Origin: Nitrospinaceae bacterium
GTDB taxonomy: Bacteria > Nitrospinota > Nitrospinia > Nitrospinales > Nitrospinaceae
Assembly: GCA_024644405.1 (NCBI GenBank)
Contig: JAHELC010000038.1
Span: 124,001 to 188,000 of the forward strand
DNA: 64,000 nt
Reading direction: 5' to 3'
Shown here: piece after piece, positions 75 through 15,307 of the stretch
Numbering within the stretch: position 1 is the first letter of the stretch
Layout: every line of letters begins with the position of its first letter
Made by a program: the position numbers and the translations under genes
Notes under the pieces: generated by a model
What the model was told of the DNA's origin: nothing
What the model saw: only the letters and a program-made list of their open reading frames with translations
Database searches by the model: none

Positions 75-2795
75 TCATTTTATTTCAAAACATTTTCGAA
101 CCAGTTGCTCAATGGCGAAATGGTATTCCGAAGGCACGTTTTTGGCTTTCTGAATTGCATCCGCCACCGCTTTTTCCTCTTGATCAAAGCGGCCCGCATT
201 TTTGACCAGGTTCTTATGGTATTCCTTTAGCTTCTGCATAACCAGTTTCCGTTGGACCGTGTCATGGGTCATATTTTTCGCCACTTTATCGGCATCCAGT
301 TGGTGCACGACCAAACGTTTAAAGCAAATTCCCTTGAACCGGGAAGCCACAGTATTCCGGCTCATATTGAGTTTTCGGGCGGTAGCATTCACTTCAAAAC
401 CGTTTTCCCGGAGCGCATCCAGCATCAATTCATCCAGGTCGGTGGCTGGTTTTTGTGCAGGTGATGTTCCCTCCTCGATTGATGAAGCCGGGCCAGGAGT
501 GATACCCAGGTCGCTCGTCTGGATCAGTTCCGTTTTTGCCAGCGCGATACCCCGTTGGATAACGTTTTCCAGTTCCCGAACATTCCCCGGCCAGTAGTAA
601 TTTTTTAAAACACTCATGGCCGATTCTGACACGCCCTCAATCGGTTTTCCATATTCCCTGCTGTATTTATCCACAAAGTGCTGAACCAGGAATTCGATGT
701 CCTCCCCGCGTTCCCGGAGCGGAGGCAGATTCAAGGGCAGTGTATTTAAACGGAAAAAGAGATCTTCCCGGAAGGCACCGCGCGCCACCTCGTCTTTGAG
801 GTTTTTATTGGTAGCAGAAATTATGCGAACATTGATGGAGCAGGGCTGGCCGCCCACCGGCTGGACTTCCTTTTCCTGCAACACCCTTAACAGTTTGACT
901 TGGATGTTCCGGCTCATTTCACCGATTTCATCGAGAAAAATACTGCCTTGGTCGGCTTCCATAAATTTCCCCTTTTTGTTGGATAGAGCCCCGGTAAAGG
1001 AACCTTTTACATGGCCGAACAGTTCGCTCTCCACCAGGTCGTGCGGAATGGCGGCCATGTTCACCGCCACGAACTTCTGGTTCTTTCGGTCGCTCAGCAG
1101 GTGAATGGCCCGGGCGAACAGTTCTTTTCCGGTCCCCGACACACCCAGGATGAGGACCGCCGAGGGCACTTTGGCATATTGTTTCAGCATTTGAAAAATT
1201 TCCAACACGTTTTGTGCCCGGGTGATGATTCCTACCCTCTCGCACTCCTGCCGTAACCGTTCCCAATCATTCTCCTCCAAAGTGACGTCTTCGAACACAT
1301 GGATTTCGAGATCGAGAACTTTACGCTCCAGTGATTCTCGCTCAGTTTTCAGATGCTCGCTTTGCTGAATAGCGGCAGACAGTTTTTGTTCAAAATCGGC
1401 AATTTTACGGGCGTTGGTCTGACTCAGTTCTTCCTGCTCTTTGAAGTTACTTTTTATTACGTCCAGGCTTTGCTGAATGCTCTCCACTTCATTCATTTTT
1501 AATGTCAAACCTTCCAATACCTCTGCCAGGCGTTTTTCCATATATTTTTTTTCGCGAGACAGGTGATCTGCATGTTTTTTTTCAACGTAAGCCTGATAGG
1601 TCGATACCCCGATAGCCGTAAATAGAATTGAAAGCAACGGCACGACCACCGGAATCACCAAGCCCAGGTGGAACAATGCAACAGATGACAGCCCATACAA
1701 AACCAAAAGCCCGATGACTGAAGCAATTTTCCCCAGGTACGAACGAATCCTGAACAGGGCAGCGGTGCCCAAGCTGATCACCAGCGTTAGAAACAAAGCT
1801 CCGGTCTCGGAAACCTCACGTAGAAAATCGCGGGTTAAAATCGTGTTGATGATATTAGCGTGGATGCCACCACCGGGATAGTTTTTTTCAAAAGGGATTA
1901 TTGTGAAATCCAGACCCGACAGCGCGTTGGAAACCAGAATAAGTTTCCCGGTCAAATCCTCACCCTGGCTTTGGCCGGGTTTCGCTTCCAAAACTGAAGC
2001 GAAAGAAGCGTGCTTGAATGTTTTCGTCCAGGTCCCCACGAAATTGATCAGCATCTGGCCGTGGCGGTCGATGGGGACAGAGATGTCTACCGGTTTTGCA
2101 CTACCAGGAAAAACCGCACGAGGCAGGATTAGGGTGTCGTCCTGGAACTTTAAACTATCAGGTGATACCTCAAGAAAATTCAATACTGCCTGAAACGATA
2201 AAGAGGGTAGGAGTTTACCCTGGTAATTCAAAAGCAAAGGCACCCGGCGGATGACGCCATCTGAATCGCGGTTGGCAGCGATGTGTCCCAGTCCGGCAAC
2301 TTTTTCCTTCAGTTCGGGCAGGGGCAGAATCGACCGCGTTACCGACAAAAAATCACTGTCAACAGGGGCTGAAATCAAACCGGAAATGGGCACCAGGGCG
2401 GAAGAGGTTTTGTCCTCATAAGACAATTCGGTTGCCACGGGAAATAGAATATTGTCTGACTGTCCCACCGCTTCAATCAAAGATCGGTCTTCTTCTTCGT
2501 TTCCTGGGTGAGCAAACAGGATGTCATAAGCGACCACTTTGGGTTTCTCTCTTTGGAGAAAGCGAACCATCTCCGTGTAGACGGTGCGCTTCCATGGCCA
2601 TCGGCCATAAATCTTGGAGCTGGCATCGTCGGCATCGATCATAATGATGTCCGGATGGGTGGCTAGAGGACCTCGCAGGATAAACCTTGCGTCCAGAGTT
2701 TTTTGCTCCCAGGCTATAAATAAAGTTTCGAATAGGAAGGATAATGCAATCGTGAACAGGGCCCCCAATATCCCCAGCATCAAATACCGTTTCAT
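75..2795 (-). CDS. CHASE2 membrane sensor fused to a sigma-54 activator (AAA+ and Fis HTH)
   Basis: A 906-residue one-component regulator. An N-terminal membrane segment (about 5-27) leads into an extracytoplasmic CHASE2 sensor domain (about 30-325), then further membrane segments (about 330-400) and a coiled coil (about 405-500). The sigma-54 AAA+ module (about 525-760) has Walker A GVSGTGKE at 551, the sigma-54 contact loop GSFTGA at 598, Walker B with LDEIGE near 621 and the arginine-finger stretch FREDLFFRLN at 675. A Fis-type helix-turn-helix lies near 790-825, followed by an unusual extension of about 80 residues. CHASE2 is more often joined to kinases or cyclases; direct fusion to an enhancer-binding protein would let an envelope signal drive sigma-54 promoters. 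Both arms of the neighbouring divergent locus carry -24/-12-like elements, so they are the likely targets. The contact loop has Ser in place of the usual Ala. The function is well supported; the ligand is unknown. Confidence 0.93.
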   Translation of the reverse strand: MKRYLMLGILGALFTIALSFLFETLFIAWEQKTLDARFILRGPLATHPDIIMIDADDASSKIYGRWPWKRTVYTEMVRFLQREKPKVVAYDILFAHPGNEEEDRSLIEAVGQSDNILFPVATELSYEDKTSSALVPISGLISAPVDSDFLSVTRSILPLPELKEKVAGLGHIAANRDSDGVIRRVPLLLNYQGKLLPSLSFQAVLNFLEVSPDSLKFQDDTLILPRAVFPGSAKPVDISVPIDRHGQMLINFVGTWTKTFKHASFASVLEAKPGQSQGEDLTGKLILVSNALSGLDFTIIPFEKNYPGGGIHANIINTILTRDFLREVSETGALFLTLVISLGTAALFRIRSYLGKIASVIGLLVLYGLSSVALFHLGLVIPVVVPLLSILFTAIGVSTYQAYVEKKHADHLSREKKYMEKRLAEVLEGLTLKMNEVESIQQSLDVIKSNFKEQEELSQTNARKIADFEQKLSAAIQQSEHLKTERESLERKVLDLEIHVFEDVTLEENDWERLRQECERVGIITRAQNVLEIFQMLKQYAKVPSAVLILGVSGTGKELFARAIHLLSDRKNQKFVAVNMAAIPHDLVESELFGHVKGSFTGALSNKKGKFMEADQGSIFLDEIGEMSRNIQVKLLRVLQEKEVQPVGGQPCSINVRIISATNKNLKDEVARGAFREDLFFRLNTLPLNLPPLRERGEDIEFLVQHFVDKYSREYGKPIEGVSESAMSVLKNYYWPGNVRELENVIQRGIALAKTELIQTSDLGITPGPASSIEEGTSPAQKPATDLDELMLDALRENGFEVNATARKLNMSRNTVASRFKGICFKRLVVHQLDADKVAKNMTHDTVQRKLVMQKLKEYHKNLVKNAGRFDQEEKAVADAIQKAKNVPSEYHFAIEQLVRKCFEIK

Positions 2796-2892
2796 TTATT
2801 TTCTCTCGAATGAAGGCAGCCCCGGTTATTTTTAAAGCCAGGTTCCCAACGAATCACATTTGATATGTCCATCGGGCTCTACTCTTTTTGCA

Positions 2893-4944
2893 TTAGCGTT
2901 TGATAAACACAAAGTCGCCGCCGTTGTGGCCGGACTGGCGGATGATACTGTAAACCGGCACTTGCTCAGCATTGCCGGCCACTCGCTCCTTGATGTGTTC
3001 TTGAAAAAACTGCTCCGCGGTGAACATTGTGTCACCAGGATTGCGCAACCCATCAAGAAAAGCCCGGGCAAAAATAGAATGTCCGCTCCCTCCGTTGTCC
3101 GATACCGGTTCGTTGCTCCCACTGGCCATTAGCGTGCGTGACGATTTTCGGAGCATTCGACTCAGGTATCGGTGATTTTGATCGTCCTGGTTGAATCGTA
3201 CCCTAATGTTGCGGGTCAGGGTTCCCGAATAGCAACTGTCCGCCACCACCAAAACGTGTTTGGCTCGGACGCGTCTGATGTTTGAGGTAATATTGTCGAC
3301 GATGATCCAGTCCGTGTCCTCTTCGGTATGAGCGTCGGCGGGTAACCAGTAGGCTTTGTTGGCAGCCTTGTCGAACTCGCCGTGCCCGGCGTAGTAGATC
3401 AGAAGATGGTCCTCCGGACCCAATTGGCGCCGAATCTTGTTGAGCGTACTCATGATGGCCCTACGCCCCGGATTGATTAGAAGGTTCGTGGTAAAGTGGT
3501 AATGTTCGCGCAGGATGCGATCCACTTCGCGGGCGTCATTCACTGCGGTCTCCAGTTTGGACATGTAACGGTAGTTATTGATGCCGATGATGACAGCATG
3601 GTATTTGCCGGTGGGTTTTGCCACGATGGGAGACGCTGAATGCGTGGATGCCATCGGTTTCGATTGCTCCCGGCGGTCGACCCAAAATAATTTATGAGCC
3701 GTATTTCCGTGAACATCTTTCGCCATCACCCGAATTTCGGTTTTACCGGATTTTAAAGGGACCGCTGATGAAAAATTGCCCAATCCATCCATCAGGGCGG
3801 GTTGATCATTAACGGTGACTTCGGCGACGCCGCTCAGGTCTTCGGCTCGGCCCGCGATCAGAGTCTCCGACAATTTGGGTACTGGAATGATACTGCGGGT
3901 AATCCCGTGCGAAGTGATAATTATCTTCGGCGGCGTGGTGTCCAGTTGACTCGCTACCATCGATGGACCTGTATAAGGACTCAAGTCCCACAACCTGAGA
4001 GTTTTATCAAGGCTTCCCGACAGGGCGTATTGCCCATCAGGGGAGAAAGCGACTGAAAAAATATACGAGTTATGACCTTTGAGGGTGCGGATGTCCCTGC
4101 CTGTGTCCACCTGCCATAGCTTGAGAGTTTTATCCCAGCTTCCCGAAAGGACGTATTGTCCATCGGGGGAAAAGGCGACTGAAGTCACCCCTCGGTTATG
4201 CCCCCTGAAAGTGCGGATGGCACGGCCCGTGGCCACCTCCCACAACTTGAAAGTTTTATCCCGGCTTCCCGACAGGGCGTACCGTCTATCGGGGGAAAAG
4301 GCGACTGAAGTCACACCGCGGTTATGACCATTGAAGGTGCGGAGGGCACGGCCCGTGCCCAGCTCCCACAATTTGACAGTGTAATCCCGGCTTCCCGACA
4401 GGGCATAGTGTCCATCGGGGGAAAAGGTGACTGAAGTCACCCCGCGGTTGTGCCCTTTGAAAGTGTGGATAGCACGGCCTGTGCCCAGCTCCCACAATTT
4501 GACAGTGTAATCCCGGCTTCCCGACAGAACGTATTGTCCATCGGGGGAAAATGCGACAGAGGTAACGACATGGTCATGTCCCTTGAGGGTGAGGATGGAA
4601 CGACCTGTGTCCACCTCCCATAGCCTAAGAGTGCAATCCCAGCTTCCCGACAGCGCATATTGTCCATTGGGGGAAAAGGTGACAGACGTGACAGTATCTT
4701 GATGTCCCCGGAAAGTCTGGATTTCCCTTCCTGTGTCCACCTCCCACAACTTGAGAGTATTATCCCGGCTTCCCGACAGCACATATTGTCCATTGGGGGA
4801 AAAGGCAACTGAAAAAACAATTTCGTCATGGCCCTGAAGGGTTTGGACGCTCCGGGCTTTGGCCGGAGCGTGATCGGCCGGCGCGATATTGGCCATGATT
4901 GCCAGTACAACTGGAACGATCAAAATTTGAATGATCTTTTTCAT
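2893..4944 (-). CDS. Exported WD40-propeller caspase-family protease
   Basis: 683 residues. A signal peptide (1-23) is followed by seven WD40 repeats of 42 residues (about 34-323), enough for one closed beta-propeller, then an Ig-like linker (about 338-425) and a C14 caspase domain (about 445-683). The catalytic dyad is visible: His521 in YYAGHGEFD and Cys571 in VADSCYSG. Prokaryotic caspase homologues commonly pair the protease with WD40 or other repeat sensors; here the protein should act outside the cytoplasm. It lies 16 bp downstream of the DUF4384 lipoprotein gene and upstream of the sigma-54 activator, all in one direction, so co-transcription is likely. The substrate is not evident. 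Proteolytic activity is inferred from the dyad. Confidence 0.92.
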   Translation of the reverse strand: MKKIIQILIVPVVLAIMANIAPADHAPAKARSVQTLQGHDEIVFSVAFSPNGQYVLSGSRDNTLKLWEVDTGREIQTFRGHQDTVTSVTFSPNGQYALSGSWDCTLRLWEVDTGRSILTLKGHDHVVTSVAFSPDGQYVLSGSRDYTVKLWELGTGRAIHTFKGHNRGVTSVTFSPDGHYALSGSRDYTVKLWELGTGRALRTFNGHNRGVTSVAFSPDRRYALSGSRDKTFKLWEVATGRAIRTFRGHNRGVTSVAFSPDGQYVLSGSWDKTLKLWQVDTGRDIRTLKGHNSYIFSVAFSPDGQYALSGSLDKTLRLWDLSPYTGPSMVASQLDTTPPKIIITSHGITRSIIPVPKLSETLIAGRAEDLSGVAEVTVNDQPALMDGLGNFSSAVPLKSGKTEIRVMAKDVHGNTAHKLFWVDRREQSKPMASTHSASPIVAKPTGKYHAVIIGINNYRYMSKLETAVNDAREVDRILREHYHFTTNLLINPGRRAIMSTLNKIRRQLGPEDHLLIYYAGHGEFDKAANKAYWLPADAHTEEDTDWIIVDNITSNIRRVRAKHVLVVADSCYSGTLTRNIRVRFNQDDQNHRYLSRMLRKSSRTLMASGSNEPVSDNGGSGHSIFARAFLDGLRNPGDTMFTAEQFFQEHIKERVAGNAEQVPVYSIIRQSGHNGGDFVFIKR
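3976..4845 (-). repeat. Seven tandem 126-bp WD40-coding repeats
   Basis: Successive 126-bp units inside the caspase gene are very similar at DNA level. Phrases such as the one encoding SGSRDYTVKLWELGTGRA recur almost unchanged in units 3 and 4. This points to recent amplification or gene conversion among blades. Confidence 0.85.
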
Positions 4945-4960
4945 GGCTCATTCTCCTTAA

Positions 4961-7138
4961 CTAACGATATTGTTCATTGCCAAAGGTGCCGATTATGTCG
5001 ATCGGTTTTTCTGGTTTTTCCGTAATGGGAATTTTTCTAGTCCCACGGGTGAAGACCTGGCTTTTTGGAAAGATAAAAATCTCTTGATGGTCTTCGGCCC
5101 AGACCTGTTTTGAGTTTTTGCTGAACTTCTCGGCCAAGACGCCAATATCCTGATTGCCCTCTTCGTCTGATTCGATAACATGGAATCCTTTATCGAGATT
5201 GAGTTGGATGGGCCATTCGGCAGTCGGCGTGGCGATGGCCTTGATCCGTTCAAGACCCGGAGGTCCCTGTATTTCGAAATCAAATTCGTCATCGGGTGCA
5301 GGAACCCGGTAAGTGACCCCGGCGCGAATGAAATTGTCCTTATGATACGCATTGGGAAAAATGACAGTGACGTCTCCGCTGGCACCGATACTCAGTAGAG
5401 TGAGATAGCTGTCCTGGTCCGCCTTGGCAAAGAACACGATTTTTTCGCCAATCTGGAAACTATCCTGGTGCGCCCAGACTTTGAGAAGAAACGGTTGTTT
5501 TTCAGGTTGGGCCGTCACTAATTGATCGAGATCCTGACGAAATTCGTCTTTCTGTGGAGCGGTAGGGATTTCTGTTTGCTCGGGTGACGGGGTATCCAAG
5601 AGAGCCAGGTCCGCCGGACGGATCGCCTGACGCTGGATGAGCGCATCGCCACTCCCCAAATAAGTGTCTGTTTCCGCGTCAAGCAATTTGACCATTATCT
5701 GGAGACCTTTATTTTCCATCCGGTAGGATCCCACCACATACATGTCCAATTGGTTTTTTTGAGCAATTTCCATGAGAGGGGTTTTATCTTCCGAATCCAT
5801 TGAAACTTCTTTGACCACCAGATTATCGGCCCTGGCCAGAAGATTTTTAAAATCTTCCACTAGAATGCTGTTGAAGGGGGTGATTTCGCTGTTTCGCAAG
5901 TCTGTAAACCGAAGTACTCCGAGGACCGGCTTTTTATCGGGATCGATATTTTGAATGAGTTTTTGAACCAATACCCTTAATCCACTTTTCCAGGCACTGG
6001 ACTCGGTGGCGAACCCTTCAATTTTCTTGATCGAGTAAGAAAAGACGGCTCTTTTTGATTTGAGAATATCCTGAAATTGTTCGAAATGTTCATTGTTAAT
6101 CTGAGATCGGATGCTGGCAATATTCAACCTGACGGACACCGAATGCACTTCCGGGTCGTAAGTCTTAACCTTCTTGACCCGGGCTCTGGCTGTGCCTTTA
6201 GCATCGGTCGTGCCATCGGCCTGAAGAGTACCCTCGCCAACTTCATACTGAAAATCCACGGGAACGCTTTGGGCAGGCACGGATTTGTTGTTCGCCGCCA
6301 GAACCGCCCTGGCAACAAAAGGTTGTTCGGGTATATTGGAACTGTTGATCTCCTGCCTGTTTCCTTCAGCGATTTCCAACCGAACATTCTGTGCTAAGGC
6401 GTTCAATTTCATAATGAAGACATTTCTATTCAGTTCTTCATAGGAGGCGGGAGCCGCTTTGGATTTGGACAACATCTGGAAAGTGCTGATTTGGGGTTCC
6501 CAATCAAGAGAAGCTTCGTAACCTTCGAGATAATTGCTGAAAGCACGAATAACGTTACCGGTTTTTTCAGCCTTCTCACCTTGGTCCATATTTTTTCTCA
6601 GACGACTTTCGATTTCATTGTTGCGATTCTGGTACTGGCTCACTAAAACGCCACGGTTCATAACAACGAAGGAGTAGTACTGATTGCGGCACTTGTCGTG
6701 GTGCCCATCCTTTCTTTCAACACCTTCCAGTACTGTGTGGACCTGAGTTTCGATCGCGTTTTCAACATAAGCTCCCTCGGTGGACAAGAAATCCTGCATG
6801 CGGGATTTGATGTCCACCTTGATCGATTTGGCCAAGTCCGAAGTAGCGGCTTGCTTGGCGGCAAAGGCACTTTCCGCTGAAATTCCCACACCGGTCAGAA
6901 ACTCACGGATGGGATAACGGGGATGTCCTTTTCCTACAACCCAACCCGGCTCAGGTGAACACAGTGTAAAAGTGGAGGCTGATCTCACCGGAACCCGGGT
7001 TTGAACTCCAGTTTTCTTGACTACAGAAGAAATTTCGGGATTCCATTCCTTTTGGTAAGCAGTACGGGCGTTTCCCAGACATGCCGATACCAACAGCCAA
7101 ATGGTGGAAATCATAATGATTTTTATTTTCAGGTCCAT
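4961..7138 (-). CDS. LPP20-family lipoprotein with C-terminal DUF4384 domain
   Basis: 725 residues with a lipoprotein signal ending in LLVSAC. The N-terminal third resembles LPP20/FlgO-type envelope lipoproteins: a PGWVVGKGHPRYP segment followed by a helical region with conserved Ala and Lys. The centre is weakly conserved and could include a FlgO-like domain (around GVLRFTDLRNSEITPFNS). The last third matches DUF4384 (about 555-650), a beta-rich domain often found beside bacterial caspases and protein kinases. The start has a clear AAGGAA ribosome site. It is the first gene of the leftward arm, about 40 nt downstream of the start predicted from the -24/-12 element at 7188-7202. A partner or sensor for the caspase is plausible but inferred. 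Confidence 0.85.
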   Translation of the reverse strand: MDLKIKIIMISTIWLLVSACLGNARTAYQKEWNPEISSVVKKTGVQTRVPVRSASTFTLCSPEPGWVVGKGHPRYPIREFLTGVGISAESAFAAKQAATSDLAKSIKVDIKSRMQDFLSTEGAYVENAIETQVHTVLEGVERKDGHHDKCRNQYYSFVVMNRGVLVSQYQNRNNEIESRLRKNMDQGEKAEKTGNVIRAFSNYLEGYEASLDWEPQISTFQMLSKSKAAPASYEELNRNVFIMKLNALAQNVRLEIAEGNRQEINSSNIPEQPFVARAVLAANNKSVPAQSVPVDFQYEVGEGTLQADGTTDAKGTARARVKKVKTYDPEVHSVSVRLNIASIRSQINNEHFEQFQDILKSKRAVFSYSIKKIEGFATESSAWKSGLRVLVQKLIQNIDPDKKPVLGVLRFTDLRNSEITPFNSILVEDFKNLLARADNLVVKEVSMDSEDKTPLMEIAQKNQLDMYVVGSYRMENKGLQIMVKLLDAETDTYLGSGDALIQRQAIRPADLALLDTPSPEQTEIPTAPQKDEFRQDLDQLVTAQPEKQPFLLKVWAHQDSFQIGEKIVFFAKADQDSYLTLLSIGASGDVTVIFPNAYHKDNFIRAGVTYRVPAPDDEFDFEIQGPPGLERIKAIATPTAEWPIQLNLDKGFHVIESDEEGNQDIGVLAEKFSKNSKQVWAEDHQEIFIFPKSQVFTRGTRKIPITEKPEKPIDIIGTFGNEQYR

Positions 7139-7187
7139 GTGAATTTTCCTTAATATTCAGGGATATCCAATACTCGCATTTACTTGA

Positions 7188-7202
7188 GCAAAGTTTATGC
7201 CA
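7188..7202 (-). promoter_or_regulatory. Sigma-54 (-24/-12) promoter for the leftward arm
   Basis: On the minus strand the sequence reads TGGCAT-AAACT-TTGC. This keeps both invariant dinucleotides (GG at -24, GC at -12) with the correct spacing of the sigma-54 consensus TGGCAC-N5-TTGC. The predicted start is near 7176, about 38 nt before the lipoprotein ATG at 7138. A sigma-54 activator is encoded in the same operon. Confidence 0.72.
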
Positions 7203-7439
7203 ATTATTTAAGGAGAAATTTATCAAAGTATATCACGGAAAAATCTGCCGAAAATATATCAAAAATCAAAAAATATCTATGTTTTAAAGCTGTCTTTTCT
7301 CATCCTCATCATTGTAAATAATGGGTATGAACGCTTGATGGGGTTGAAAACTGAACGTTTATCAAACCAGTTATTTGTGTCTTTCCGATTTCGAGAAACG
7401 CAGCAGGGAAGCAATATTTATATCCTAAAAAAGAGGGTG

Positions 7440-7467
7440 TGCATGGTCCCGTGCATGGTTCCATGCA
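7440..7467. promoter_or_regulatory. Tandem dyad, candidate enhancer for the sigma-54 activator
   Basis: Two overlapping 16-bp dyads: TGCATGGTCCCGTGCA (7440-7455, one mismatch between arms) and TGCATGGTTCCATGCA (7452-7467, perfect 7-bp arms). They lie roughly 265 bp upstream of the predicted leftward start and about 180 bp upstream of the rightward one, the distance at which dimeric sigma-54 activators usually bind. The link to the CHASE2 regulator is inferred. Confidence 0.55.
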
Positions 7468-7616
7468 TGAATATGACAATTTCAGGTATTCATTTATCGG
7501 AGACTTGCCTTAAAAAAAAATGATTCCCAATACTCTGGATTCTGTCCGGCTGAATAATTTATTTAAAATTAGATAGTTAAAAAAATTTTCTGGAATTTTA
7601 TTTATTCCAGGTGCTG

Positions 7617-7632
7617 TGGCACGGACTTTGAA
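7617..7632 (+). promoter_or_regulatory. Probable sigma-54 promoter for the rightward arm
   Basis: The plus strand reads TGGCACG-GACT-TTGA-A. The -24 half is a perfect TGGCACG and the spacing is right, but the -12 half has TTGA instead of TTGC, so the site may be weak or tightly activator-dependent. A start near 7643 would give a leader of about 85 nt before the ATG at 7729. Confidence 0.55.
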
Positions 7633-7728
7633 GTACATAGCGCAACAGAGTTATTAACGAATCTCAAGGGTTTCAGATTTTTTAACCAACCAATATGAAT
7701 GTTATCTAATCCAGTCGAGGTGAACATC

Positions 7729-8322
7729 ATGAGAAAGAAACTAAATTGGCACAAACAGCTAACGTTTATTTTAATTTTAGGAATTTTAACGGCCTGTTCT
7801 GGAACTAAATCTCAACTCCCGCCAAATTTCATTCCAATTCAAGATTTAGACGCACCGGAGTGGGTTACCAAAGGCAAAACGTCTTCTGATAGTAACGCTT
7901 TTTATGGAGTGGGGCTCTCTCATGGAATCCACAATACGGCCCTATTAAGAGAAACAGCGGACAACCGTGCTCGCGGCTCTCTGATGGATGTGTTTGATAT
8001 TTATATTGCCAAATTGCATAAAGATTATATGGAAAGCGCCACCCAGGGCGATATGTCAGCCTCCACCGAAACGCAATATATCGAGCGCGCACTGAAATCG
8101 GTGACCGACATGACGCTGAATGGATCAGAAATCGTCGACCACTGGCAAAATCCCAATAACGGGGAACTGTATGCCCTGGCACGGGTGGATTTCGAAAACT
8201 TCCAGCAGAACCTGGCCAAGTACAATGAACTTTCCAGGGAGATTCGCAACGCCATTAAACAGCAGGCCGAAAAATCTTTCGAGGACCTGGACAGAGAGCT
8301 GGAAAAACGAAGGAGACGGTAG
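7729..8322 (+). CDS. LPP20-family lipoprotein
   Basis: About 197 residues. The ATG at 7729 is chosen over one 30 bp upstream because GAGG lies 8 bp before it and it gives a clean lipoprotein signal (MRKKLNWHK... then LTAC). The mature part has the LPP20 hallmarks: PEWVTKG near the start, FYGVGLS, and RETADNRARGSL. It ends in a charged helix (EDLDRELEKRRRR). It is paired with the protease gene 5 bp downstream and is related to the N-terminal part of the larger lipoprotein across the divergent promoter. The family is envelope-located and of unknown biochemical role. Confidence 0.88.
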   Translation: MRKKLNWHKQLTFILILGILTACSGTKSQLPPNFIPIQDLDAPEWVTKGKTSSDSNAFYGVGLSHGIHNTALLRETADNRARGSLMDVFDIYIAKLHKDYMESATQGDMSASTETQYIERALKSVTDMTLNGSEIVDHWQNPNNGELYALARVDFENFQQNLAKYNELSREIRNAIKQQAEKSFEDLDRELEKRRRR

Positions 8323-8327
8323 CCATC

Positions 8328-9350
8328 ATGAAAATCAGAATCTTCATTTTACTTATATCAGTGGGTATGGTAAATCTCGTCTGGGCAGACGATTTCAACC
8401 CTCGGAAGATATACCGCGAAATGTCCCCCAGGGTTGTCTTGATCGCCGCCTTCGAACCGGGACAAACCTATAAAGGGGTGGGGACCGGCAGTATCATCCG
8501 TAAGGATGGGCTGATCCTCACCAATGCCCACGTTGTTTTCAACAAAAACGAATCCAAGCCCCTCAGCCAAATAAGAATCTTTCTCAAGCCGGAAAGGCTC
8601 ACAGGGGATCTGGCGTGGGACACCTCCCGGAAATATAAGGCTATTCTTTTAAAGTATTCGAAAAACCTGGACCTGGCGATCCTTAAAATCCAGCCAAGCC
8701 GGGAGCTTCTGGATCTCTCACCCATTGCCTTTAAGGATTCGAAATTTGTGGAAGTGGGGGAACCGGTACTGGCCATAGGCCATCCGGAAACCGGAGGTCT
8801 TTGGTCTTTGACTACCGGATCAATCAGCAGTCAGATCAAAAATTTTCAAAATATCCCCGGAAAAGACGTATTTCAAACCGAAGCCAGTTTCAATCGCGGA
8901 AATTCCGGCGGTCCCTTGTTGGACAGTCATGGCCTGATGGTCGGCATCAATTCCAATGTGTCCAGAAAAAGCAAGAAAGATGGGCTGGTCATTACCGATA
9001 TCAACTTTTCTATCAAGTCGAACGTGGTCATCCGTTGGTTAATTGCGGAAGGATATTCTTTCTCGCCCGAAAGGGAAACACCACAAGCGATCCAACAGCC
9101 CAAATCAACGCCACTTCTTTCTTCAAAACCGATGCGTCTGGGTCATTCTCGAATTCAGGAGGCAGGTATCGCTCCGATTCCAAAAAAGCAGGAAGACAAA
9201 AAGAAAAGACCCACTGCCTCTTCGCATCCATCGGTAGAACCGCAAATTCTCACTGAAAAGCGGCCCTACAGTAAGAAGGATTTGCTGAAGCAAGTGGAAG
9301 AAAATTTGGAAGACATGATCAAATCCATGCGGCGCAAACATGGGCGCTGA
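8328..9350 (+). CDS. Exported trypsin-like (S1C/DegP-type) serine protease
   Basis: 340 residues with a signal peptide ending near VWA-DD. The chymotrypsin-fold domain has the full triad: His68 in TNAHVV, Asp115 in NLDLAIL and Ser193 in RGNSGGPL. After about residue 250 there is no PDZ domain; instead there is a Pro/Lys-rich linker and a short basic helix. This makes it a free-standing, probably periplasmic protease rather than a classical DegP. It sits with the LPP20 lipoprotein on the rightward arm opposite the caspase operon, so two unrelated proteases may share one control region. Confidence 0.92.
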   Translation: MKIRIFILLISVGMVNLVWADDFNPRKIYREMSPRVVLIAAFEPGQTYKGVGTGSIIRKDGLILTNAHVVFNKNESKPLSQIRIFLKPERLTGDLAWDTSRKYKAILLKYSKNLDLAILKIQPSRELLDLSPIAFKDSKFVEVGEPVLAIGHPETGGLWSLTTGSISSQIKNFQNIPGKDVFQTEASFNRGNSGGPLLDSHGLMVGINSNVSRKSKKDGLVITDINFSIKSNVVIRWLIAEGYSFSPERETPQAIQQPKSTPLLSSKPMRLGHSRIQEAGIAPIPKKQEDKKKRPTASSHPSVEPQILTEKRPYSKKDLLKQVEENLEDMIKSMRRKHGR

Positions 9351-9594: not shown

Positions 9595-9810
9595 TAAAAC
9601 TCGTAATACCTTATTTCTTAATTGCTAATGCAGTATCAGTTTTTTAAGATGCCTCAAAAGTTACCCCATCTTCTTTAGCTTTAATAACTACTGGCCTATT
9701 CCCAAATCTCACATTCAGGTTTTAGGTTTAAATCCTTTTATATATTCTGGACTCGTTTTTGGGAGGCAAGTCATGGATAAAAGCGAACTAAAAACCATTT
9801 TTTAATAAAT
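9595..9810. other. Non-coding left edge of the putative island
   Basis: AT-rich DNA without a convincing gene. A GGGAGG ribosome site precedes a 10-codon reading frame at 9773-9805 (MDKSELKTIF), which looks like a truncated gene start or leader remnant rather than a functional gene. Confidence 0.4.
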
Positions 9811-11799: not shown

Positions 11800-11848
11800 A
11801 CAATTTGAACATTAAACAAACCTTGTGAAAATTTACTGGAGAAACGTC

Positions 11849-12901
11849 ATGAACACGAAACAAAAACTTAAGTCAGCAATAGCCGCCTTTGCACTGGCCG
11901 CTTTTATGGGCAACCCAAATGCTTGGGCAGAAACCCAGGTACCCGAAGACATGGTCCTGATTCCAGGCGGACCGTTTCTTATGGGGGTCGACAAAGAAGT
12001 AAATGCCAAAACAGAGAAAATGTCTAAAATAAAACGACTCAAATACTCCGTTTCCCGCGAAGCCTTCCATGATGAAGGTCCCGCCCACAACATCACTTTA
12101 GATACTTACTATTTGGACAAGTACGAAGTGTCCAACCAGCAATACGGGCAATTCATTAAAGCCACGGGACATCCCGCCCCGGCCTATTGGGACGATCACC
12201 TGCGAAACAAACCGAATCAACCCGTAAGCGGTGTGAATTGGCACGACGCCAACGCGTTTTGCAGCTGGGCCAACAAGCGCCTGCCGACGGAAGCGGAATG
12301 GGAAAAGGCCGCACGGGGTCCGGAAGGATACAAGTATCCGTGGGGGAACGAAGTGAACTCAAACAATGCAAACTTCGGCCGGAAACAGGAATTCACCGCG
12401 AACGTGGACGCCTATCCCGGCGGTAAAAGTCCCTACGGGGCCTACAACATGGCAGGAAACGTTTTTGAATGGGTCGCTGATTGGTATGACCCCAACTACT
12501 ACAAAAACAGGAAAGATATGACCAACCCGACCGGTCCGAAAGAGGGCGCGTTCCTGAGTAATACCGGCACTTACGTGGACCGTATTGCAGTCGGCAAGAA
12601 ACGTGTCATCCGCGGTGGATCCTGGTATGCCCCAGCGGAAAGCGTGACCAACACTCATCGTTTCTGGAACGATCCTATGAACAACAGTTATGGTGTGGGA
12701 CTTGGGTTTCGTTGCGCCCGTTCGGCGGAAGGTGAATCCGCGGATCAGGCTCGCACTTTTTACATGGAGGCTTTGATCCATATGGGTGCGGAAAAGTATC
12801 CGCAGGCGATGCAATCTATAGAAAAGGCGCTGAGCCAGGACGCATCTAACCCGGAATACCTGCAATTGCAGAAAATGATTCAAAAGCAGGTCCGGAACTA
12901 A
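11849..12901 (+). CDS. Exported SUMF1/FGE-sulfatase-fold protein (copy A)
   Basis: About 350 residues, starting at the ATG with GGAG 7 bp upstream rather than one 24 bp earlier. A signal peptide ends in AWA. The body is a SUMF1 (formylglycine-generating enzyme) fold: MVLIPGGPFLMG, YEVSNQQYGQFI, VSGVNWHDANAFCSWANKRLPTEAEWEKAARG, GNVFEWVADWYDP, RGGSW and a final GVGLGFRCARS. The two copper-binding active-site Cys of true formylglycine-generating enzymes are absent after RGGSW, so an FGE reaction is unlikely. Structural or redox-accessory SUMF1 proteins such as NirV are a better comparison. A C-terminal TPR-like helical pair (about 305-350) is shared with copy C. It heads a rightward block of exported redox proteins. 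Confidence 0.88.
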   Translation: MNTKQKLKSAIAAFALAAFMGNPNAWAETQVPEDMVLIPGGPFLMGVDKEVNAKTEKMSKIKRLKYSVSREAFHDEGPAHNITLDTYYLDKYEVSNQQYGQFIKATGHPAPAYWDDHLRNKPNQPVSGVNWHDANAFCSWANKRLPTEAEWEKAARGPEGYKYPWGNEVNSNNANFGRKQEFTANVDAYPGGKSPYGAYNMAGNVFEWVADWYDPNYYKNRKDMTNPTGPKEGAFLSNTGTYVDRIAVGKKRVIRGGSWYAPAESVTNTHRFWNDPMNNSYGVGLGFRCARSAEGESADQARTFYMEALIHMGAEKYPQAMQSIEKALSQDASNPEYLQLQKMIQKQVRN

Positions 12902-12909
12902 AACCTTTT

Positions 12910-12961
12910 CTCGGGTTTGATTTAAGAGGAGGGGATTCATTCCCTCCTCTTCAAACCGAGA
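12910..12961 (+). terminator. Long hairpin between SUMF1 copy A and the next gene
   Basis: A perfect 10-bp stem (AAGAGGAGGG at 12924 with CCCTCCTCTT at 12942) is extended by an outer CTCGG/CCGAG pairing. There is no T-run after it, so it may be an RNA-processing or stability element, or a leaky terminator, inside the operon. Confidence 0.5.
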
Positions 12962-12998
12962 CTTCTGGTGTTATCAAACAAAACCAGGAAAGTCAATC

Positions 12999-13379
12999 AT
13001 GAGACAAATCGTTCATTTTTTGAATAAATCAAATTTAACAGGGAGCTTTCTTCTCTGTGCTGCGTTGTTTCTCTTTATTCCAAGCTCGGGATTCTCTGAA
13101 AGTTCGCATGAGAAGGGCGTCGTCGGCAAGACCGCTCAAGCCCGGATGGCCGTCGAACAGGCATGGGAAACCTACCATCATGCCGCATTGGGTGGAACCC
13201 TGGCATCTCCCACGGTCCAGACCGAATTGGAAATGAATCTCCATATATCGCGTGCACTGCTTGCCGAAGCTTATGCAGCGGAAGATAGAGGCGACATGAA
13301 AATGACTCACAAATTGATCGAACAAATCTTGCAAATCACCGACACAGTCATCACTGAAAGCCAGGAGCCTAAAAAATGA
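12999..13379 (+). CDS. Exported protein of unknown function
   Basis: 126 residues, signal peptide ending near GFS-ES. The mature part is all-helical (QARMAVEQAWETYHHAALGG... LLAEAYAAEDRGDMK...), resembling small TPR-like or helical-bundle periplasmic proteins. It overlaps the start of the next SUMF1 gene by 4 bp, so translation is coupled. No family was recognised. Confidence 0.75.
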   Translation: MRQIVHFLNKSNLTGSFLLCAALFLFIPSSGFSESSHEKGVVGKTAQARMAVEQAWETYHHAALGGTLASPTVQTELEMNLHISRALLAEAYAAEDRGDMKMTHKLIEQILQITDTVITESQEPKK

Positions 13380-14188
13380 CAGCTGTATCTAAATTTTTAA
13401 ATTTGACCTTTCTAGTATGCCTGGTTTCGGCGTTGTGCAATCTCCACACCGAGGTTAATGCAGATTCCTTAAAGAAGGAAAGAAGAGACCCGGTTGCGAT
13501 GGCAATTATTCCGGCGGGAGAGTTTTTGATGGGCAGCAAACAGAGAGAGGGCAGAGCAGATGAACGACCGCAGAGAAATGTATTTCTGGATACGTATGCA
13601 ATTGATGTCTATGAAGTGACCAACCAACGTTATCTAAATTTCATTCATGCCACCGGACGTAAAGAACCGCCGAATCCCTACGGCGAGATATTACTGTCGG
13701 AAGAATCAGGAATCGATCATTTACCTGTGGTTCAGGTGACCTGGTATGACGCAGTTGATTATTGCAATTGGGCGGGAAAACACCTGCCGACGGAAGCGCA
13801 GTGGGAAAAAGCGGCGCGGGGAGATCGCGGATCCTTATTTCCCTGGGGAACCCAGTCCCCCCAAACAAAGCCGGTCAATTTTGAAAGGAACTGGGATGGA
13901 ACCAGCACCCTTTGGACGGTTGGATCACAAACAGGGACTGAATCGCCTTATGGAATACACGATATGGCCGGAAATGTTCGCGAATGGACACAGGATTGGT
14001 ATGGCTCGGATTATTACGCAACCGCCCCCGCCAGGAACCCGCAAGGTCCGGGAACAGGAATTCTGAAGGTCATCAAGGGCGGTTCCTGGCACAGCTTTAA
14101 AGCGGATGTTCGGCCGGCTTCAAGAGGTAAAGGCGGATTCGCGCTTAAAACCGATGGTATTGGATTTCGTTGCGCCAAAAATAGATAA
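13376..14188 (+). CDS. Exported SUMF1/FGE-sulfatase-fold protein (copy B)
   Basis: 270 residues with an N-terminal signal segment (ending around VNA-DS). Core SUMF1 motifs are MAIIPAGEFLMGS, YEVTNQRYLNFIHATG, VTWYDAVDYCNWAGKHLPTEAQWEKAARG, GNVREWTQDWYGSDYY, IKGGSWHSF and GIGFRCAKN. It is shorter than copies A and C because it lacks their C-terminal helical extension. The FGE catalytic Cys pair is absent after the KGGSW stretch, so it is unlikely to make formylglycine. Translational overlap with the small exported helical protein suggests the two work together. Confidence 0.87.
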   Translation: MTAVSKFLNLTFLVCLVSALCNLHTEVNADSLKKERRDPVAMAIIPAGEFLMGSKQREGRADERPQRNVFLDTYAIDVYEVTNQRYLNFIHATGRKEPPNPYGEILLSEESGIDHLPVVQVTWYDAVDYCNWAGKHLPTEAQWEKAARGDRGSLFPWGTQSPQTKPVNFERNWDGTSTLWTVGSQTGTESPYGIHDMAGNVREWTQDWYGSDYYATAPARNPQGPGTGILKVIKGGSWHSFKADVRPASRGKGGFALKTDGIGFRCAKNR

Positions 14189-14224
14189 AAAAAATTAAAA
14201 GCAATCAGACTTTGGGAGGCCCCT

Positions 14225-15307
14225 ATGGGTTGGCATTCAAAAAAATTAGCGATCAAACTTGTAACTCTATTACTGTTGACCGTATTCGCCGGAACATCGT
14301 TTCCCCTTACGAGCGCAGCTGAACCCCCGGCTCCAGAAAATATGGCCCTGGTCAATGCCGGCGGGTTTATGCGGGGGATTGATAAACCCCCAGCCACGCA
14401 CGCCAACGCTATTCGATCATCGTCTCAGAATACGAATTTCCCGGTTTTAAAGGAAGCGTTTGCGGATGAGGGCCCGGCTCGAATGATTTATCTCAGCGCC
14501 TATTTCATTGACACGTATGAGGTTTCCAATGCCCGGTACATTGAGTTTATCAAAGCCACCGATTATCCCGCCCCCGCGTATTGGGACCATCATCAACTCA
14601 ATCAACCCAACCAACCGGTCACCGGGGTGAACTGGTACGACGCGAACGCCTATTGCCACTGGGCAAATAAAAGGCTACCAACGGAAGCTGAATGGGAGAA
14701 AGCCGCGCGTGGGCCCGCGGGCTCCATCTATCCCTGGGGTAATGAACTGGATTACAGCAAGGCTAATTTCCAAAAAGGTAAAACCGGTCAGAAGCATATT
14801 ACGGTTCCCGTGGACGCTTACCCTGAGGGAAAGAGTTATTACGGTGTCTACAACATGGCCGGAAACGTATTTGAGTGGGTCCAGGACTGGTACGATCCGA
14901 ATTATTACAAGACATCCAAAGAAGTAAGAAATCCAAAAGGTCCTCAATTCGGAATTAAAATTGGAACAACTGGAACCTATCTGAACCAACAAGTTACCGG
15001 GAAAAAGAAAGTGATCCGTGGCGGCTCCTGGTTTGCTCCAGCCCAAAGCATCACCACCACCCATCGCTTTTGGAATGACCCCATGAACAACTCTTACGGA
15101 GTAGGACTGGGTTTTCGATGCGCCCGCAGTGTGGAAAGCGATTCACAAATGCAAGCTCGTTCTTTTTATATGGACGCACTTATTCAAATGGGTGCCGAAA
15201 AATACAAGGAAGCCATGATTTCCATTAACAAAGCCTTAAAAAACAATCCCGATAACAAAGAATATCGAAAACTCAAGGCAATGATTGAAGAACAGAGCAA
15301 TCTTTAG
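14225..15307 (+). CDS. Exported SUMF1/FGE-sulfatase-fold protein (copy C)
   Basis: 360 residues and a close paralogue of copy A along its whole length, including PAYWD(D/H)H, the LPTEAEWEKAARGP stretch, FEWVxDWYDPNYYK, RFWNDPMNNSYGVGLGFRCARS and the C-terminal helical pair (QARSFYMDALIQMGAEKY). A GGAGG ribosome site precedes the ATG. The hydrophobic segment around 12-30 is a signal peptide or anchor. The FGE active-site Cys are missing as in A. Two such copies around a divergent third suggest local duplication in this operon. Confidence 0.87.
   Translation: MGWHSKKLAIKLVTLLLLTVFAGTSFPLTSAAEPPAPENMALVNAGGFMRGIDKPPATHANAIRSSSQNTNFPVLKEAFADEGPARMIYLSAYFIDTYEVSNARYIEFIKATDYPAPAYWDHHQLNQPNQPVTGVNWYDANAYCHWANKRLPTEAEWEKAARGPAGSIYPWGNELDYSKANFQKGKTGQKHITVPVDAYPEGKSYYGVYNMAGNVFEWVQDWYDPNYYKTSKEVRNPKGPQFGIKIGTTGTYLNQQVTGKKKVIRGGSWFAPAQSITTTHRFWNDPMNNSYGVGLGFRCARSVESDSQMQARSFYMDALIQMGAEKYKEAMISINKALKNNPDNKEYRKLKAMIEEQSNL

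What the first reader, a model, noticed from the sequence alone, without database searches (positions are those of the whole stretch)
75..9350. Divergent sigma-54 locus joining a CHASE2 sensor, a caspase and a trypsin-like protease
Two unrelated exported proteases (WD40-caspase with His/Cys dyad; S1C protease with full triad) and two LPP20-family lipoproteins are arranged on two arms of one control region, and the only regulator is a membrane CHASE2-sigma-54 activator. Each arm has a -24/-12-like element (7188-7202 minus; 7617-7632 plus). Seen: domains, dyads and promoter elements. Known: sigma-54 promoters need such an activator; DUF4384 and caspase genes co-occur. Inferred: an envelope-stress-triggered proteolytic or defence system under direct sensor control. 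I know of no described system of this make-up.
Basis: partly seen in the sequence, partly recalled or inferred. Interest (0 to 1): 0.82.

Follow-up and report, generated by a model that had tools for sequence, protein, structure and literature searches.

The report
Membrane sensor switching on exported proteases
A bacterium of the Nitrospinota carries an accessory gene island in which one membrane-bound sensor appears to switch on, through a DNA enhancer lying between two back-to-back promoters, two sets of cell-envelope genes that include a caspase and a trypsin-like protease; comparison with relatives supports the switch well, but what the proteases do is not known.

Summary
All five genes, both catalytic sets and both -24/-12 elements are in the sequence. 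The element pair is unlikely to be chance (joint shuffle p = 0.001, the floor of that test) and recurs at matching positions in related loci. The motif recurs in related divergent loci whose genomes carry the CHASE2-sigma-54 regulator and is absent from loci without it. In one relative (G026) the regulator sits among promoters of which 10 of 12 have this motif 86-115 bp upstream of the -24 element, several driving curli-type (CsgG, curlin) genes. Best reading: a membrane-tethered one-component sigma-54 activator with its own enhancer, controlling envelope genes, here two lipoproteins, an exported trypsin-like protease and an exported WD40-caspase. The LPP20-protease-DUF4384 core is conserved but patchy in the order Nitrospinales and lies in a 24-kb segment missing from a sister species. 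Sigma-54 control is well supported and 'envelope' is supported; 'stress' is untested and 'defence' has no support. New variant of a known kind.

The parts
75..2795 (-). CHASE2 - transmembrane - coiled coil - sigma-54 AAA+ - Fis-type HTH regulator (906 aa), GSFTGA loop
   Evidence: orthologues 39-52% identical over full length in the order
2893..4944 (-). Exported WD40-caspase (683 aa), His/Cys dyad intact (YYAGHG, DSCYSG)
4961..7138 (-). Envelope lipoprotein: LPP20-like N-terminus, LpoB/CsgG-like middle domain, DUF4384
7187..7202 (-). -24/-12 sigma-54 promoter element TGGCATAAACTTTGCT driving the DUF4384-caspase-regulator arm
7440..7467 (.). Tandem palindromic enhancer (UAS): TGCATGGTCCCGTGCA + TGCATGGTTCCATGCA
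7617..7632 (+). -24/-12 sigma-54 promoter element TGGCACGGACTTTGAA driving the LPP20-protease arm
7729..8322 (+). LPP20-family lipoprotein (ORF listed from 7699; lipobox and orthologue starts favour 7729)
8328..9350 (+). Exported trypsin-like (HtrA-related, no PDZ) serine protease, triad H68/D115/S193

Best explanation
The locus is a dedicated one-component switch. A membrane-tethered activator senses an extracytoplasmic ligand or state through CHASE2. Its cytoplasmic AAA+-Fis part binds the tandem palindrome at 7440-7467 and, by DNA looping, remodels sigma-54 RNA polymerase on both flanking -24/-12 promoters. This co-induces an LPP20 lipoprotein with an exported trypsin-like protease on one arm, and a DUF4384/LpoB-like lipoprotein, an exported WD40-caspase and the regulator itself (positive feedback) on the other. 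The products act together in the periplasm or at the outer membrane, most likely in assembling or proteolytically processing a surface structure. Shown by sequence: genes, dyad and triad, promoters, enhancer, conservation, co-occurrence. Inferred: DNA binding, looping, autoregulation, the signal, and the joint envelope function (the last is the weakest step).
For: Outward -24/-12 elements, joint p = 0.001, at like positions in G021, G028 (two loci) and G049. Enhancer present in window, L037, L038, L039, L040 (two places) and L045, absent in L041, L011, L044, which also lack the promoters. Perfect motif in 4 of 64 genomes of the order, all carrying the regulator (Fisher p = 1e-4, but three of the four were used to define the motif, so only G026 is an independent success); no other site with at most 1 mismatch to the window's palindrome in the own genome. 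In G026, 10 of 12 strong -24/-12 sites inspected near the regulator have the motif 86-115 bp upstream, with CsgG and curlin genes behind several. LPP20-protease-DUF4384 core syntenic in the order. All outputs carry signal peptides or lipoboxes. RpoN present; FTGA of the sigma-54 loop invariant.
Against: No transcription or binding data. Enhancer-to-promoter distances in the window (about 150 and 240 bp) are longer than in G026. The core occurs without this regulator in G013, G022 and G055, so the core function does not need it. G025 and G050 have the regulator without the motif in the stretch read. The caspase has no fixed position and varies in architecture. The promoter weights were written from memory of the published consensus, and the motif pattern was written after the G026 sequences had been seen. 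L037's own pair scores only p = 0.05.
Confidence: 0.62

Rival explanations
1. Envelope-stress protein quality control: the sensor detects envelope damage and induces a DegP/DegS-like clean-up set (trypsin-like protease, caspase) with two lipoproteins.
For: Protease is related to HtrA and all products are exported; several relatives add further trypsin-like paralogues and a CHAT protein.
Against: No PDZ domain and far below HtrA cut-offs; the regulator's neighbours in G026 are mainly curli-type genes; patchy, accessory distribution is unusual for core quality control.
Confidence: 0.23
2. Anti-invader or cell-death system: caspase and trypsin-like protease are effectors released on attack.
For: Caspase, trypsin-like and lectin-like FGE domains recur in predicted conflict systems, some with CHASE2 (PMC8195603); the segment is accessory.
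Against: PADLOC gives only generic domain hits; products are exported; no EAD, Death-like or STAND domain seen in the Pfam scans; no phage record matches the DUF4384 protein; in G026 the same switch sits with curli-type genes.
Confidence: 0.08
3. The two arms are separately controlled by other promoters and the -24/-12 elements are fortuitous.
For: Some relatives' elements score modestly (L037 joint p 0.05); no transcription data.
Against: Conserved positions, a shared enhancer and the G026 array.
Confidence: 0.07

Closest known systems
NtrC/PspF-type sigma-54 enhancer-binding proteins acting on divergent promoters
   Same: AAA+ sigma-54 domain, FTGA loop, Fis-type HTH, palindromic enhancer upstream of -24/-12 promoters
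   Different: The sensor is a membrane-embedded CHASE2 module in the same chain (no separate kinase or PspA-type partner); no paper in the held library mentions CHASE2 together with 'sigma-54' or 'enhancer-binding protein'
Metacaspase-CHASE2 fusion of Trichodesmium erythraeum (PMC3501461)
   Same: Joins an extracellular CHASE2 receptor and a caspase domain
   Different: There the two are one protein with a predicted cytoplasmic caspase; here CHASE2 would control transcription and the caspase is exported
EACC1/EACC2 and other predicted caspase/trypsin conflict systems (PMC8195603)
   Same: Caspase and trypsin-like proteases; CHASE2 in some
   Different: No adaptor or STAND domains seen here; exported products; sigma-54 control
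Curli/CsgG export systems and FlgO/FlgP/FlgT flagellar lipoproteins
   Same: LPP20-fold lipoprotein, LpoB/CsgG-like domain; CsgG and curlin genes near the orthologous regulator in G026
   Different: No curlin-repeat protein in the own genome; DUF4384 and proteases are not known curli or flagellar parts
Sigma-54 as controller of the bacterial exterior (PMC3162934)
   Same: Fits the general theme that sigma-54 governs envelope and surface genes
   Different: The text of that survey does not mention CHASE2

Membership tests
Sigma-54 enhancer-binding protein | PF00158 AAA+ domain with GAFTGA-type loop | tested here: met
   E 4e-64; GSFTGA in the window, FTGA invariant in 7 sequences
Sigma-54 enhancer-binding protein | C-terminal Fis-type HTH | tested here: inconclusive
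   HTH_8 21.1 bits against cut-off 22; the helix RNTV and the region around it are conserved
Sigma-54 enhancer-binding protein | Enhancer palindrome upstream of -24/-12 promoters, RpoN in the genome | tested here: met
Sigma-54 enhancer-binding protein | DNA binding and ATP-dependent activation of sigma-54 polymerase | not testable with these tools
   needs experiment
Bacterial caspase homologue (C14) | His-Cys dyad in the p20 domain | tested here: met
   YYAGHG and DSCYSG; PADLOC caspase model E 1.5e-17
Bacterial caspase homologue (C14) | Peptidase activity | not testable with these tools
   needs assay
HtrA/DegP (S1C) | Trypsin-fold catalytic triad | tested here: met
   H68, D115, S193 invariant in 9 orthologues
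HtrA/DegP (S1C) | PDZ domain and family cut-off | tested here: not met
   no PDZ; 113 bits against cut-off 416
Known anti-phage defence system | System-specific PADLOC components | tested here: not met
   only generic AAA+, caspase, WD40-type and protease models
EACC1-type caspase conflict system | EACC1-associated caspase model above cut-off plus adaptor domains | tested here: not met
   74 bits against cut-off 140; no adaptor domain seen
Curli system | CsgG exporter with curlin-repeat subunits | tested here: not met
   no curlin repeat in G000; CsgG was not searched for across G000

The most novel reading that the evidence does not exclude
A membrane-tethered, single-protein sigma-54 switch with its own enhancer code is a portable regulon module in Nitrospinota. 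It has been wired both to curli-type fibre export and to exported caspases and trypsin-like proteases, so that bacterial caspases here work as envelope-processing enzymes under transcriptional control rather than as cytoplasmic death proteases.
Probability: 0.3. Interest if true: 0.75.

Novelty: new variant of a known kind. Interest (0 to 1): 0.58.

Why it matters
It gives a concrete, testable regulatory setting for exported bacterial caspase homologues, whose roles are largely unknown. It also offers a case where a sensor, its DNA enhancer and its promoters can all be read off the sequence and tested, and it raises the physical question of how a membrane-anchored protein works as a DNA-looping sigma-54 activator.

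Tried and rejected
A single-protein scan of genome contigs found nothing; repeated with an alignment it gave the Nitrospinota titles. Phage records: no match; plasmid records: only short DUF4384-domain matches, in Rhizobium and Deinococcus. Looser enhancer-like sites in the own genome (2 mismatches) were checked at 8 places; none has a strong -24/-12 nearby, so no wider regulon is claimed here. Regulator-like proteins in three genomes outside the order (31-33% identity) have none of the cassette genes nearby. The viral structure library gave nothing informative beyond a DUF4384-protein hit. The empty-site comparison gave no clear repeats at the edges, so gain or loss is open. Literature searches for CHASE2 with sigma-54 or enhancer-binding protein, and for Nitrospina with curli, returned nothing; the library holds open-licence papers only.

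Full report
WHAT IS THERE. On the minus strand: 7138-4961 DUF4384 lipoprotein, 16 bases later 4944-2893 WD40-caspase, then after 97 bases 2795-75 the CHASE2-sigma-54 regulator. On the plus strand: LPP20 lipoprotein (ORF from 7699; the ATG at 7729 fits the lipobox and the orthologues) and, 5 bases later, a trypsin-like protease 8328-9350. The caspase dyad (YYAGHG, DSCYSG) and the serine-protease triad (H68, D115, S193, invariant in nine orthologues) are intact. Hydropathy gives the regulator one N-terminal and several later membrane stretches around CHASE2 (3-30, 330-401), and gives the caspase, protease and DUF4384 protein N-terminal export signals; both lipoproteins have a lipobox cysteine.

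HOST. Loci found by sequence search are titled Nitrospina, Nitrospinaceae, Nitrospinia and Nitrospinota, and several are the same contigs as those of genomes placed in the same order as the window's 2.98-Mb assembly.

PROMOTERS. Scored with a -24/-12 weight table written from memory of the published consensus, the two elements are TGGCATAAACTTTGCT (7187-7202, minus, 14.5) and TGGCACGGACTTTGAA (7617-7632, plus, 12.7), about one per 49,000 and one per 26,000 positions of background. Against 1000 dinucleotide shuffles the pair has p = 0.001, which is the smallest value 1000 shuffles can give, not an estimate of how far below it lies. A strict pattern (TGGCAY-N5-TTGCW) occurs 19 times in the genome against 3 for the reversed pattern. 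RpoN is present.

ENHANCER. Between the promoters lies TGCATGGTCCCGTGCATGGTTCCATGCATG. Two overlapping 16-base palindromes (7440-7455, 7452-7467) are found in the window where 0.02 are expected, and no other site with at most one mismatch to TGCATGGNNCCATGCA was found in the genome. Orthologous intergenic regions in G021 (L037), G028 (L038, L039) and G049 (L040, L045) hold arrays of the same CATGCATGG core. Loci with LPP20-protease or DUF4384 genes in genomes where no regulator was found (L041, L011, L044) have neither the motif nor the promoters; L042, where a CHASE2 protein without the AAA+ part stands in the regulator's place, has promoter-like elements but no motif. In 64 genomes of the order the perfect motif TGCATGGNNYCATGCA occurs in four, all of which carry the regulator, one of them (G049) as a contig-end fragment (Fisher p = 1e-4). 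That test is partly circular, because the pattern was written after aligning the loci of G000, G028 and G049; only G026 is an independent success.

INDEPENDENT SUPPORT. In G026 the orthologous regulator (48% identical) is surrounded by a string of operons. Of 12 strong -24/-12 sites inspected within 30 kb, 10 have a CATGCATGG-type motif 86-115 bases upstream of the -24 element; the exceptions are the sites at L043:13871 and at the caspase-FGE gene L094:12808. The search expression used was written with these sequences in view and one of the ten (L043:16041) is a degenerate copy, so the count is descriptive; the regular spacing is the stronger point. Genes behind or next to these promoters include two CsgG-type exporters and two curlin-repeat proteins. 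In G049 a caspase gene and a DUF4384 gene diverge from a motif-bearing region with two -24/-12 elements (joint p = 0.002). These data tie motif, regulator and sigma-54 promoters together without using the window.

CONSERVATION. The LPP20-protease pair and the DUF4384 lipoprotein occur together, mostly divergent, in G000, G013, G021, G022, G028, G049 and G055. No DUF4384-protein relative was found in the seven other genomes of the window's genus or the four others of its family that were searched, some of them incomplete. In the sister species G002 the flanks of the window's segment lie 181 bases apart, so about 23.9 kb (from some 14 kb left of the window to window position 9776) is absent there. 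Whether this is gain or loss is open; no edge repeats were found. Relatives add further caspases, TPR-CHAT proteins and extra trypsin-like paralogues.

PROTEINS. The DUF4384 lipoprotein model (mean pLDDT 69, pTM 0.43; only parts are reliable) has a middle domain like LpoB (E 9e-6, TM 0.70 of the target), and Pfam gives weak LPP20 and FlgO matches. The LPP20 lipoprotein model (mean pLDDT 76) resembles the LPP20 fold family, best by Tip-alpha and Lpp20 of Helicobacter. This is fold resemblance only and says nothing about activity. The protease is HtrA-related but has no PDZ domain and does not reach any HtrA cut-off.

HOW IT MOST LIKELY WORKS. See best explanation. Shown by sequence: parts, motifs, conservation, co-occurrence. 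Inferred: ligand sensing, DNA binding and looping, autoregulation through a DUF4384-caspase-regulator transcript, and a joint envelope or surface function. The surface reading leans on G026, where the same switch sits with curli-type genes, and on the reported tie of sigma-54 to the bacterial exterior (PMC3162934). The window's genome has no detected curlin-repeat protein, so its own surface target, if any, is unknown.

KNOWN OR NEW. Sigma-54 activators, CHASE2 sensors, caspases with WD40 repeats and DUF4384 proteins are all known; a metacaspase fused to CHASE2 has been described (PMC3501461), and CHASE2 and proteases appear in predicted conflict systems (PMC8195603). Not found in the papers held: a CHASE2-sigma-54 activator described at all, or a caspase under sigma-54 control. 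Regulators of like architecture (31-33% identity) exist in three genomes outside the order, without the cassette. This is therefore rated a new variant of a known kind.

Noticed in passing
L094 and L043 (G026:C1:282001-312000): About ten operons with near-identical sigma-54 promoters and enhancer motifs around the regulator, including CsgG and curlin-repeat genes: a candidate sigma-54 curli-type regulon in Nitrospinota.
   Followed up: partly
left of the window, L004:3860-18000: The same accessory 24-kb segment also holds a CHASE2-nucleotide cyclase, a FecR-TPR protein with an outer-membrane barrel-like end, a kinase with cyclic-nucleotide-binding domains, a PAS kinase and response regulators.
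   Followed up: partly
L042:8247-9392 (G013): A CHASE2 protein without the sigma-54 and HTH parts sits in the regulator's place, between DUF4384 and caspase genes.
   Followed up: partly
L038:11379-11900 and equivalents: A conserved exported 173-aa protein (KLYLDDTRTKHIMVEQQDC) without Pfam match follows the protease in several relatives; absent in the window.
   Followed up: no
window 7590-7610: Inverted repeat CTGGAATAAATAAAATTCCAG directly upstream of the plus-strand -24 element.
   Followed up: no
window 11825-15307: Three FGE-sulfatase-domain (SUMF1-like) proteins followed by small cytochrome-like proteins, right of the accessory segment.
   Followed up: no
L109: A contig titled Flavobacteriales holds a 33% identical DUF4384-protein N-terminus; its title gives very low coverage, so it may be misassigned.
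   Followed up: no
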